A stretch of DNA of 43,096 bases, from positions 1 through 43,096 of the forward strand of contig AZLU01000204.1 of NCBI GenBank assembly GCA_002224055.1, in the 5' to 3' direction. Position 1 is the stretch's first letter; the number at the start of each line of letters is the position of its first letter. Below are positions 9,781 through 40,235 of this stretch, piece after piece. The notes beneath the pieces were generated by a model that saw only the letters and a list, made by a program, of their open reading frames with translations, was not told the origin of the DNA and made no database searches. The position numbers were made by a program, and so were the translations under genes. The DNA comes from Pezizomycotina sp. ARF18 (Eukaryota; Ascomycota).

Positions 9781-11318
9781 ATGGCTGCTCCCGCTCTATC
9801 AAGAACCCTTTTGAGGACGGCCTTCCGCTCTGCTCATCCCAATCCATTTTCGGGCATCCGACAGTCCCTCACGCATGCTCGGGCTCCTCGCGCAAAGAAT
9901 GGATCCCATGGTCGTAGACAATACTCCTCCGCGTCCGCTGCCGGCGCGACTGGTGGCAGCATGTCCAAGCCTCTGCTGCTGAGTGTCGCCGCAGGTACCC
10001 TTGCAGGTGGCGCTTACTACCTGTATGCTACCGACCAATTCTCTACCTTGGGCAAGGCGCCAGCCCGCCAATGTCGACCAAGGATAAATATCAGCAAGTT
10101 TACGACGAGATTGCGCGCTTGCTTGTTGAGAATGACGACTATGATGATGGCTCTTACGGGTAAGCTACGGTTGATCTGTACCGTCTCAGTATATATGCCA
10201 AAAAATAGCTTCGTATTAACACTTTTATAGACCCGTTTTGCTTCGCCTTGCTTGGCATGCGTCTGGAACGTACGATAAAGAAACCAACACAGGCGGAAGC
10301 AACGGAGCTACCATGCGTTTCGCTCCGGAATCTGACCACGGCGCCAACGCCGGTTTGAAGGCTGCTCGAGACTTCCTGGAGCCCGTAAAACGTGAACAAT
10401 CTTTTGATTCCATCTGATTTCAACTGAAAATTATGAATAACCAAAATAAACGCTAATTTGGTCATTTGGATTTGTATAGAGAAATTCCCGTGGATTACTT
10501 ACTCCGATCTATGGACACTTGGTGGTGTCTGTGCTGTTCAACAACTTGGAGGTCCTAATGTAAATCATCACAATCCTTTGGCATATTTTCATCGCCTTTT
10601 TTTCGTCACTGTTAGCTGATATGCTGTGAGAATACTGTAGATTCCGTGGCGACCAGGCCGCCAAGATGGCGACCAGGCCGCCTGTACTCCTGATGGACGA
10701 TTACCCGACGGAAGTAAAGAACAAAAGCACCTCCGAGCAATATTCTACCGCATGGGCTTCAATGACCAGGAGATCGTGGCACTTTCTGGTGGTCACGCCT
10801 TAGGTATGCATTATTTAATGCCCTTCCAGCTCTCAGTTGCTAAATGCTATGCTTTCCTTAGGTCGTTGCCACACCGATCGTTCCGGGTATGAAAATCCCT
10901 GGACTTTTAGTCCAACAATGCTCACAAACGACTTCTTCAAGCTTCTAGTGGACGAGAAGTGGCAGTGGCGCAAGGTAGTCAATCTTTTTTTTTCTTTTTT
11001 TTTTTCTTTCTAATCAAGCTTAAACTCGCTGTAGGATTGGCAAAAGATTTAGATTTTATACTGACGTATACTCAATTTCATAAAATACAGTGGAATGGGC
11101 CCGCGCAATACGAGGACAGCAAGACTAAATCTCTTATGATGCTGCCTACAGACATGGCTCTTGTTAAGGACAAAGAGTTCGCCAAGCACGTTGCCCGCTA
11201 CGCCAAAGATCAAGATGTCTTCTTCGATGAGTTTAGCAAGGCGGTCGCTAAGCTTTTTGAGCTCGGTGTCCCGTTCAAGGATGACCAGGAGAAATTCTTC
11301 CTGACTGTTAAAGAGTAA
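9781..11318 (+). CDS. CCP1: cytochrome c peroxidase, mitochondrial
   Basis: Haem peroxidase of the mitochondrial intermembrane space that reduces hydrogen peroxide using ferrocytochrome c. Exons: 9781-10159, 10231-10391, 10480-10559, 10641-10803, 10862-10974 and 11091-11318, all GT...AG; about 374 aa after correction for one missing base. The N-terminus is Arg/Ser-rich (transit peptide), followed by a hydrophobic sorting segment (LLLSVAAGTLAGGAYYLYA). The catalytic domain begins MSTKDKYQQVYDEIAR. The distal haem site is in LLRLAWHASGTYD (Arg, Trp, His). The conserved block IPWRPGRQDGD and the proximal-His motif GGHALGRCHTDRSG are present, as is the late MLPTDMALVKDKEF block. One break: a base is missing near 10068-10072, just before MSTKDK, most simply CCC read as CC. 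Family assignment is secure. The motif GGHALG has Gly where the family usually has Ala. Confidence 0.96.
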
Positions 11319-12012
11319 ATAAAGCTCGACAATTGGCACGACGCTGAAATACAATAATCGTCGATCCTGGTTGAGATGCGACTTTGACGAGGGAAGAGAT
11401 TTTTAGTACGCATCATAGCAGATAGTACATCTGGTTTTCGGCATTTATTCGCATATATAGACGAAAACATAAGCAAAGAAGGGGAAAGGTGTGAGATTGA
11501 TAATTGGTGGATCCGTCATCTATCTATACCAGCATATTCCATGCGATATTATCTTAAAAGGGCGTTTATATATTTGATTAGATTGAAATTTGCTTAATTG
11601 GGATTAGAATATAGAAGGCGGTGCTAATGTTACCATGTACTATATGAGAATCTAGTGGTTGTAGGCGGTTTATAATGTCATTGTAGCTCTCCGCTCAAGT
11701 ATATCGAAGAAGCTCCAAAAATGTTACCCTATCCCTACACAAGTAAATTTCCCAACATTAAACTCTCCAACTATTATTTTATCTACGTATACATTTGTCT
11801 CGTACCCAACTCTAATATTTTATTTGGCCCTGCGGGAAAAAAAATAAAGAATATCAAATTAGACTACCATATTAATAATAATAATATTCCGTCCGGCTTA
11901 GAACATTGGGTTATACTAATAATGATACCCAGGTAATCACGAAGCCGCCCCTCTGTGTTGAGTTTCAAGAGGTTTTTTTTTCACGTGTTACGGCGCCGAG
12001 GTGAGGTGAGGT

Positions 12013-37168: not shown

Positions 37169-37385
37169 TTATTTATTTTATTTATTTATTTATTTGGTTC
37201 TTTGGCTGGCACGTTGACGATTTCTTCCCGTTGTGTTAGGCCTTTGCTGTGAGTTACCAGTAAGCGAGAAACCCCAAAGCAACCGACCTCATGGGAAAAA
37301 AAAAAAAAAACCCATGCAAAAACACACACACCTCTAAAGCCCTCGAGAACAACTTTATCAAAATACCGTAACCCGACATACCAGC
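36615..37385. other. intergenic region, ARG2 to ORC4
   Basis: AT-rich spacer containing a long ATTT repeat shortly before ORC4. No gene recognised. Confidence 0.6.
37110..37194. repeat. (TTTA)n microsatellite
   Basis: About 20 units of a TTTA tetranucleotide with a few one-base irregularities, 190-275 bases upstream of the ORC4 start codon. Confidence 0.95.
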
Positions 37386-40235
37386 ATGAGCCTCGTCGAA
37401 GCTCGAGGCAACGCTGCGCCCGCACCAGCAACCGCCGGGACTCCAGCCAAGCAACGGGGCAAGCAATTGCTGACCGCGCTTCCGTCCAAGTAGACACACC
37501 CCTTCGAAGAGGCGGAAGACAAGAGGTGGAGACCAACCGGCCAATGATGAGGAGGATAATGCAGCAGATAACGACGACCCGTTCGCGTTCAAGGAAGACA
37601 ACGGCAAAACTTAAGAGGGACGTCCGCGAAGAACGCGAAAGCTCCCTCGCTGACTGCTAAAACGAAAGCGCAAGCATCTGCTGCTGCGGCTGCGACACAA
37701 TCGTCGGGTCACGACGCGGACAGCGACGATTCGGAAGGTTCAGCCATACGCGTCCGGACGTCACTACTCCGTCTCCCAATCGAGCAGGAAGACTCCCGGC
37801 TCCGCTCGGGGAGGGCAAAAGCGACCCCCACGTCACGGGTGCGCAAGGCATCGCGGGCAGAGCAGAAGGGGGAGCCGAAAGTAAAGCCAGGGGGAAAAGA
37901 CGATAGTGAAGGTGGGAGGAAGACACGGACAAGACGCCACGAGCACGTGGCGGAAGGGGCAAGTTAGCTTCAAGCTGTTTGAAGCTCCAGGAACCCAAGT
38001 AGCATCTCCTGCCAAGAAATCAGTAGGTCGGCCGAGGAAATCCCCAATTACTACGGCCGTCCATAACGACGAGGAAGAGGAACCAAAGGCAGCTACAAGT
38101 TCGAAGCGGGGTGCTTCTAATCGAATCTTCAAAGCCCATAAAGAAGAGAGGTGCAGCGGCAGCAAGCGACACAGCCGAGCAAGATGCTAGCGGTAGCGAT
38201 GTCTGGGAAATAGAGTCCGATGACGACGGCCAAGGCGGTGAAAGCGACGTTTTAGTTCAAGGTTATCTCGGAGCACAAAGCTTAACGCCGAGTTAAGGAA
38301 GGCAGCAACGCCAAGAAGAAACAGGCAGGGGCAGCTTACGGAGGTGAAGGGAAGCTGATGGACGTGGAGAGCTTGCTGGCATTTCAGTGCTGCATCCAGA
38401 GTTCGAGTATACGGCTAAAGTAAGCCAGCGGGCTGTTAACGCCGTGAAAAAAGCATGTTATGGCAAAGTTACGGGAGGAGTTACCCCCAAACACTCGCGG
38501 GTTTAGATGATGAATACAAGTAAGGCTCATTGACGAGAAAAAAAAAAAAAAAAAAAGCAAGAAAAAGAAAGAAAAAAGTGCTTACATAGCGTGTTTCTAT
38601 GCTAATACTACAAGCATATTCTGCCGCTAGAACAGTAAATCAGCTCATGGAACAGACAATATCTCAAGGAGAAGGCAACTCGATGCTCTAATCGACCTAG
38701 AGGCAGTGGCAAAACAGCTACGGTGGAGAGATCAATCCTGGAGCTGAAGAGGAGTACCCTAAAGAATTTTTGGTCGTGCGTCTCAATGCCTCATACAGAA
38801 TGACGAAAGACGGCTGTAAGAGAAATTTGGAGGCAACTGGGTGTTGGTATGGAGATCGAAGAACAACAGAAGGTAAGAAAGATTTCCACTGCGCCTCCGG
38901 CATGGCTACTATTTGAAATAAAGAAAGAATAATTTAAAAGTTCCCTTACCGGTTTTTCTAACATTCCCAGTCATCAACTTTGCAGATACCCTTACCTCTG
39001 TGCTTGCGCTACTTCTCATCCCTCCGAGCATGTCCCTGAGAACGCCGAAGACGAAATCGCTGAAACAGCAACCAGCATATCTGTGATATTCCTTATCTCC
39101 GAGTTTGAGCTGTTTGCACTGCATTCAAGGCAGACCTGCTGTATAACCTCTTCGACATTGCGCAGGCAAAGAAGGCCCCGATCGCTGTGATAGGGATGAC
39201 AACCAGGGTGGATGCTGTGGAGCTCTTGAAAAGAGGGTCAAGAGTAGGTTAGCCATCGGACGACGGCGTTCAAGATCGGAGGAAATGCAGGGAACAAATT
39301 GGAAGGATGGTGGCAGGTGCTTAGGAGCGGGCTGTGCGTTGACGCGGATGAAATCGGGGACGATGAAGGTGGCGAAGCTTTACAATCGGCAGACTGGAAT
39401 TACTTTGATGCATGGAACGAGCATTTGACGTTGGTGACCTTCTTTGATCATTTCATTCCTTTTTTGTTTTGTTTCTATTTTTATTTTTTCAATGCCTCGA
39501 TGCAACCAGAGGAGCTGATCTTGTTCTAAAGTTTATGTTCAAATCGGACGGCCAATTCAGGGATACCGTGGAGAGGCATCTTTTGGCAGACCAAAGATAT
39601 TAAATATTACTACTCTCACTGCCTGATACCGATCTGCGATCTTAGCCCTGAGCAACCGTTTCTACGCGGGGCGCCGGCGTTATTGAAAGATGCCTTGATA
39701 CCTCCAGACAATAAACTCTACATGCTACAGGGTAAGTGGCCCTTTATTCCTTATGGAAGCAAGCCTTTCCTCCAAATCATGTCATTGATTAACGAAATTC
39801 GGCCGTTTGTTTCCCAGACCTACCTGAACTTGCACTAGCTCTCCTAATATGCGCCGCCCGCCCTTAATCCGATCCTCGGACACAGACATGTGCAACTTTA
39901 CGATGGCTTACGAGGAGTACAATAGCCTTCTTGGAAAATTTAAACAACATTCACAGTCCCTCATAGTGATGAAAATTTGGAATAAGGAAGTCTCGCTCTC
40001 GGCATGGGAAACACTATCGACCACGAGCTTATAATCCCTGTTCAAAGGTGCTGGCGGCGGCGCACGGGAGCGAGCAACTTCTCGGAAGTAGCGGTTTGTT
40101 TAGAAGGGGGCGAATGTACAGGGTTGATGTCGGTTGATGGAGATAAAAAGCAAGGTAGAAGCTGGGAATGGGCAGCATATTGCAAAATTGGTGTACAATC
40201 TAAGATATAAACGGCATACATCACTATCATGTTGA
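37386..40235 (+). CDS. ORC4: origin recognition complex subunit 4
   Basis: AAA+ subunit of the six-protein complex that marks replication origins and loads MCM. The N-terminal part (37386-38300) is long, basic/acidic and disordered, with two AT-hook cores, GRPR at 37618-37629 and KKSVGRPRKSPI at about 38014-38049. The AAA+ domain begins near YKTVNQLMEQTISQ after an intron (38520-38630). Walker A is PRGSGKTA; later come EFLVVRLN and AVREIWRQLGVGMEIEEQQ. After intron 38873-38970 come FADTLTSVLALL and a Walker B region SVIFLISEFELFALHSRQ, then LLYNLFDIAQAK and IAVIGMTTRVDAVELLEKRV. Further blocks: RDTVERHL, LIPICDLSPEQPFL, LIPPDNKLYMLQ, intron 39732-39817, DLPELALALLICAAR, CNFTMAYEEYNSLLGKF and C-terminal RMYRVDVG. 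More than ten single-base losses break the frame, among them LIGPRG, where GGA reads GA near 38690. The 3' end at 40235 is in the frame giving RMYRVDVG. Confidence 0.9.

What the first reader, a model, noticed from the sequence alone, without database searches (positions are those of the whole stretch)
9781..40235. Systematic single-base-loss frame breaks in every protein gene, including essential ones
CCP1, SEC59, ARG2, ORC4, the 951-aa gene, the F-box genes and the membrane protein all need frame changes. Every break I could phase moves the reading frame by +2, equal to loss of one base: CCP1 near 10070; SEC59 near 12850, 13495, 13558 and 15100; the large gene near 16335 and 18280; the F-box gene near 21960 and 22400; the membrane protein near 26985, 27245 and 27292; ARG2 near 35945, 35988 and 36328; ORC4 near 38690. 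Many sit in short runs and restore a conserved residue when one base is added. The tRNA-Arg also lacks one base. Real decay would give insertions and larger deletions too, so a deletion-biased long-read assembly is the best reading.
Basis: partly seen in the sequence, partly recalled or inferred. Interest (0 to 1): 0.75.

Follow-up and report, generated by a model that had tools for sequence, protein, structure and literature searches.

The report
Missing-base errors in a genome assembly
The broken genes in this stretch of a probably fungal genome are best explained by single letters dropped during sequencing and assembly, as happened elsewhere in the same genome, so they are a quality warning and not biology.

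Summary
They are not local. In the same assembly, HSP70 and chaperonin (CCT) genes show 33 frame changes without room for an intron: 25 are of the one-base-loss class, 6 more are exactly two bases short, 2 are undecided. The strongest evidence is internal. Contig C50 (mitochondrial, circle of about 215 kb) has overlapping ends, so some DNA was assembled twice. Two stretches were compared: 3,075 columns with 0 substitutions and 26 gaps, and 1,805 columns with 5 substitutions and 55 gaps. Most gaps are one base in a run of equal letters, and the copy nearer the contig end is the shorter. Close 5S rRNA copies show 7 single-base losses and no gain. Tandem rDNA copies agree over the 1,665 bases comparable in all three. 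DNA searches with about 36 of the window's 43 kb found no second long copy. Under-polished long-read consensus is the explanation (0.96). Corrections: not every change is +2 (ARG2 and ORC4 fit paired losses), some frame changes are introns, and no call confirmed SEC59 or the membrane protein.

The parts
9781..11318 (+). CCP1-like gene (cytochrome c peroxidase), several introns, one proposed break near 10070 in the leader/mature junction
   Evidence: PF00141 matches at about 10226-10396 and 10638-11210; the break is undecided by the frame test; gene ends read by eye
12627..15290 (+).
   Evidence: Frame test; no Pfam match, so the name is unconfirmed; ends read by eye
16167..19161 (+). Large gene of unknown family with a 540-codon open stretch; two proposed breaks, +2 at 2 of 2
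   Evidence: ORF list, frame test, no Pfam match; start read by eye
21640..22636 (+). F-box gene; two proposed breaks, +2 at 2 of 2
   Evidence: PF00646/PF12937 at about 21715-21825; frame test
26591..27420 (+). Proposed membrane protein gene (end approximate); three proposed breaks, +2 at 2 of 3, one undecided
   Evidence: Frame test; no Pfam match on either strand
33698..33785 (+). tRNA gene with an intron, one base short between acceptor and D stem
   Evidence: Rfam tRNA alignment, 43.8 bits, one model position unfilled; ARAGORN calls tRNA-???; CCG (Arg) anticodon is my reading
34654..36600 (+). ARG2-like gene (N-acetylglutamate synthase; ends approximate); two neighbouring proposed breaks fit paired losses, a third is undecided
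   Evidence: PF04768 at about 36053-36325; frame test
37386..40210 (+). ORC4-like gene (ends approximate) with a frame change near 38690 that fits two losses, and at least one intron-sized frame change
   Evidence: ORC4_C at about 39575-39733 and 39870-40061; PDB ORC4 chains at about 39109-39234; frame test

Best explanation
The frame breaks are residual consensus errors of a long-read assembly that was not, or not enough, polished. The consensus drops single bases, usually inside runs of two or more equal letters; in coding DNA each loss shifts the frame by +2. Shown here: DNA assembled twice within this assembly differs by such gaps, the copy nearer the contig end being shorter; essential gene families on other contigs and 5S genes carry the same losses; tandem rDNA copies nearly agree. 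Inferred: that low read depth is the cause, that the window breaks arose the same way, and that the platform resembles PacBio continuous long reads more than nanopore (recalled knowledge, not tested).
For: C50 ends: 3,075 columns, 0 substitutions, 26 gaps, 22 of them in the copy 3.7-6.7 kb from the contig start; 1,805 columns, 5 substitutions, 55 gaps, 37 of them in the last 1.8 kb of the contig; single-base gaps in runs of 2 or more in 23 of 23 and 42 of 50 cases against 57% and 56% of bases. HSP70/CCT: 33 non-intron frame changes of 53 pairs; 25 one-loss class (19 of them exactly one base short), 6 exactly two short, 2 undecided. 5S: seven losses and no gain in the six copies closest to L073. 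C257: an RPB2-family match lies in an 879-codon open frame in one copy and in a 196-codon frame in the copy about 37.3 kb further on, near the contig end. No second long copy of searched window stretches. Published ascomycete nanopore assemblies went from 1.1-3% complete BUSCO before polishing to about 98% after (PMC9453082, passages).
Against: No reads were available, so no single window site is proven. Not everything is broken: a 951-base RPB2 match on C82 stays in one frame (with two TGA inside), the window has open stretches of 540 and 404 codons, and several 5S copies and tRNAs look whole. In the C50 pairs 4 of 26 and 18 of 55 gaps lie in the other copy, so both copies are imperfect or some gaps are gains. 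Diverged 5S copies also show a few gains. Window sites: 6 of 16 do not show a simple +2.
Confidence: 0.96

Rival explanations
1. The window is a decaying, dispensable block (pseudogenes or a relict chromosome piece), with working copies elsewhere.
For: Many genes in one stretch carry breaks, and the assembly could be incomplete.
Against: No second long copy was found with window 1-9700, 9781-22700 and 26500-40300 (about 7 kb of the window was not searched). HSP70 and CCT genes on other contigs are broken the same way. Decay would bring substitutions and varied indels; the C50 and closest 5S comparisons are almost free of substitutions.
Confidence: 0.015
2. The frame changes are introns misread as single-base losses.
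For: The genome has introns: 20 of 53 adjacent HSP70/CCT pairs and 9 of 11 pairs of two other families are intron-sized, as is the ORC4_C change.
Against: 33 of 53 pairs have less than 40 extra bases between the matches, most of them exactly one or two bases short. The 5S and tRNA losses cannot be introns.
Confidence: 0.015
3. The losses are real and are overcome in the cell, by insertional RNA editing (as recalled for Physarum mitochondria) or by programmed ribosomal frameshifting (as recalled for Euplotes).
For: Essential genes are affected in many places, which a living cell would have to overcome if the losses were real.
Against: The same mitochondrial DNA is assembled with and without the bases. 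The lost bases are of all four kinds with no shared signal except runs of equal letters. Losses also hit tRNA and 5S genes, which frameshifting cannot help.
Confidence: 0.003

Closest known systems
Residual indel errors of long-read-only assemblies
   Same: Mostly single-base errors in runs of equal letters that break reading frames; the literature passages read describe this for fungal nanopore (PMC9453082) and bacterial long-read assemblies (PMC8812927, abstract and passages).
   Different: Here losses also occur in runs as short as two letters and almost without substitutions. The platform is not known.
Pseudogene blocks or relict genomes
   Same: Many broken genes side by side.
   Different: Breaks also lie in essential families on other contigs, and doubly assembled DNA disagrees with itself.
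Insertional RNA editing (recalled, Physarum mitochondria)
   Same: Genomic sequence lacks single bases that the working RNA would need.
   Different: There, as I recall, the losses are in the DNA itself; here the same DNA is assembled with and without them.

Membership tests
Long-read consensus error | Independent assemblies of the same DNA disagree by indels with few substitutions | tested here: met
   C50 ends: 0 substitutions/26 gaps and 5 substitutions/55 gaps
Long-read consensus error | Errors concentrate in runs of equal letters | tested here: met
   23 of 23 and 42 of 50 single-base gaps in runs of two or more, against 57% and 56% of bases
Long-read consensus error | Genome-wide, not confined to one locus | tested here: met
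   HSP70, CCT, and one pair each in RPB2 and ATPase families; 5S genes. One RPB2 gene shows no change
Long-read consensus error | Fewer errors where read depth is high | tested here: inconclusive
   Depth not available. Shorter copy is the one nearer the contig end and tandem rDNA copies nearly agree, both indirect
Long-read consensus error | Accurate reads carry the missing bases | not testable with these tools
   No reads held
Pseudogene block | Working copies elsewhere in the genome, for essential genes | tested here: not met
   No second long DNA copy for three searched stretches of the window; diverged paralogues were not sought at protein level
Pseudogene block | Breaks confined to the dead block | tested here: not met
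   Same class of breaks in HSP70/CCT on other contigs
Insertional RNA editing or programmed frameshifting | Losses constant in DNA and tied to a recognisable signal | tested here: not met
   Same DNA assembled with and without the bases; all four letters affected
Insertional RNA editing or programmed frameshifting | RNA or protein shows the restored frame while DNA reads do not | not testable with these tools
   No RNA, protein or DNA reads held

The most novel reading that the evidence does not exclude
Some of the single-base losses in this organism's nuclear genes are real and are restored in the RNA by insertional editing, hidden among the assembly errors.
Probability: 0.003. Interest if true: 0.95.

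Novelty: not a real feature. Interest (0 to 1): 0.08.

Why it matters
Anyone annotating this genome would call essential genes pseudogenes, miss genes or report false gene loss. In the C49 HSP70 gene six frame changes, together about eight bases short, fall within 1,783 bases. The overlapping ends of a circular contig gave an error test that needs neither reads nor a reference.

Tried and rejected
An ab initio codon-usage model with equal penalties for loss and gain found only three weak genes in the window, with two 'ins' steps and no 'del' step; the coding signal was too weak and I did not use it, but taken at face value it does not support losses. PF00361 on the mitochondrial contig gave pieces that could not be told from intron-split exons. 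ORC4 in the two other frames found nothing in PDB. Longest open stretches in six 10-kb samples were 131-310 codons against shuffled means of 111-144; suggestive of fragmentation but without a healthy control genome, so not used. A literature search guessing at the organism did not identify it. The tRNA of C257 found no match among plasmids. Rows dropped before counting: three pairs too far apart and 20 intron-sized pairs; a few of the 33 kept pairs are overlapping alternative-frame matches of one region. In one search, 9 of 11 pairs were intron-sized (one only just, 44 bases) and C257 rows were set aside as probably not nuclear. The L037/L042 comparison (1,225 columns, 1 substitution, 35 gaps) overlaps L017/L042 and was not counted separately. 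(blastn) gives slightly different gap placement (54 gaps and 7 substitutions for L017/L042); the numbers used are.

Full report
What was checked. The window is the first 43,096 bases of contig C204 (74,665 bases) of an unnamed assembly of 46.36 Mb in 408 contigs. Its gene content suggests a filamentous ascomycete; that is my inference, not a tool result.

The breaks. Stop-free frames were measured at all 16 sites of the finding. At 10 of 16 the +2 frame stays open longest beyond the site. ARG2 (35945, 35988) and ORC4 (38690) stay open longest in the +1 frame, as two nearby losses would give. CCP1 10070, membrane protein 27245 and ARG2 36328 are undecided by this test. So 'every break is +2' is too strong, but most sites point to loss. 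Families found: peroxidase, F-box, the N-acetyltransferase domain of N-acetylglutamate synthase and ORC4_C in two frames, and ORC4 chains in PDB. The tRNA is one base short against the Rfam model.

Is it local? No. For the HSP70 and CCT families of the same assembly I compared neighbouring matches of each gene. Of 53 pairs, 20 have room for an intron and were set aside. The other 33 change frame without it. Of these, 25 are of the one-base-loss class, 19 of them exactly one base short; of the remaining 8, six are exactly two bases short and two are 7 and 10 bases over. If loss and gain were equal, 25 or more of 33 would have probability 0.002. A few of the 33 are overlapping alternative-frame matches of one region, so they are not all independent. 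The C49 HSP70 gene, whose best PDB match is mitochondrial Hsp70, shows six changes in 1,783 bases. Two more families add one one-loss pair and one two-short pair out of 11. Against this, an RPB2 match on C82 runs 951 bases in one frame, with two TGA inside it.

The internal replicate. Contig C50 (231,088 bases) holds 33 of the 54 tRNA matches, all on one strand, and all 8 matches of PF00361, so I take it as mitochondrial. Its ends are the same DNA: positions near 3.7 kb and 13.9 kb pair with positions about 215,390 bases further on, an overlap of about 15.7 kb, of which about 4.9 kb was compared. One stretch aligns over 3,075 columns with no substitution and 26 gaps; the other over 1,805 columns with 5 substitutions and 55 gaps. 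Single-base gaps fall in runs of two or more equal letters in 23 of 23 and 42 of 50 cases, against 57% and 56% of all bases. In the first pair the copy 3.7-6.7 kb from the contig start has 22 of 26 gaps; in the second the copy in the last 1.8 kb has 37 of 55. The shorter copy is the one nearer a contig end, which is what loss at low depth predicts. The remaining gaps lie in the other copy, so neither is perfect. Truly diverged copies would be expected to show substitutions.

Other replicates. Fifteen 5S genes were compared with L073. The six closest (at most two mismatches) show seven single-base losses, no gain and four mismatches; the more diverged copies show losses and a few gains. Three rDNA copies agree at all 1,665 bases comparable in all three, and two of them differ by one indel pair further on; part of each is withheld as N. 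On contig C257 a gene with an RPB2-family match lies in an 879-codon open frame, and its copy about 37.3 kb further on, near the contig end, in a 196-codon frame.

No second copies. DNA searches of the assembly with window 1-9700, 9781-22700 and 26500-40300 show the window itself, short dispersed repeats and low-complexity matches, but no second long copy. The remaining 7 kb or so was not searched, and only the best candidates are scored.

Explanation. The best-supported account is residual consensus error of an under-polished long-read assembly. In filamentous ascomycete nanopore assemblies complete BUSCO genes rose from 1.1-3% before polishing to about 98% after, and low coverage left indels in genes (PMC9453082, passages read). 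The near absence of substitutions and the involvement of runs as short as two letters make me guess PacBio continuous long reads; that is recalled knowledge. What remains unshown is the state of the reads at each window site, and read depth.

Value. As biology it is not a feature; it is a quality warning about this assembly.

Noticed in passing
G000 contig C257 (56,537 bases); L094 and L095: The same tRNA (anticodon TCA, identical in both 91-base stretches) lies twice, 37,322 bases apart, and an RPB2-family match with an 879-codon open frame also recurs at about that distance. It may be a circular element of about 37.3 kb with overlapping ends and its own divergent RNA polymerase subunit; a plastid-like, plasmid or virus-like origin was not resolved.
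   Followed up: partly
G000 contig C50 (231,088 bases): Very large, probably mitochondrial circle of about 215.4 kb with at least 30 tRNA matches, all on one strand.
   Followed up: partly
window 20130-20335: Dispersed repeat of about 190 bases; 32 of the 51 matches fall here, at 73-86% identity.
   Followed up: no
window 33262-33351: Short dispersed repeat upstream of the tRNA; 6 of the 25 matches fall here.
   Followed up: no
G000:C189 (79,730 bases): rDNA unit of 10,867 bases; the 5.8S copy at 62431-62536 is only 106 bases long and scores 39 bits, while three others score 160 bits.
   Followed up: no
L077, L081, L082, L083 against L073: A second 5S rRNA sequence type differs from the common one at 11-12 positions.
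   Followed up: no
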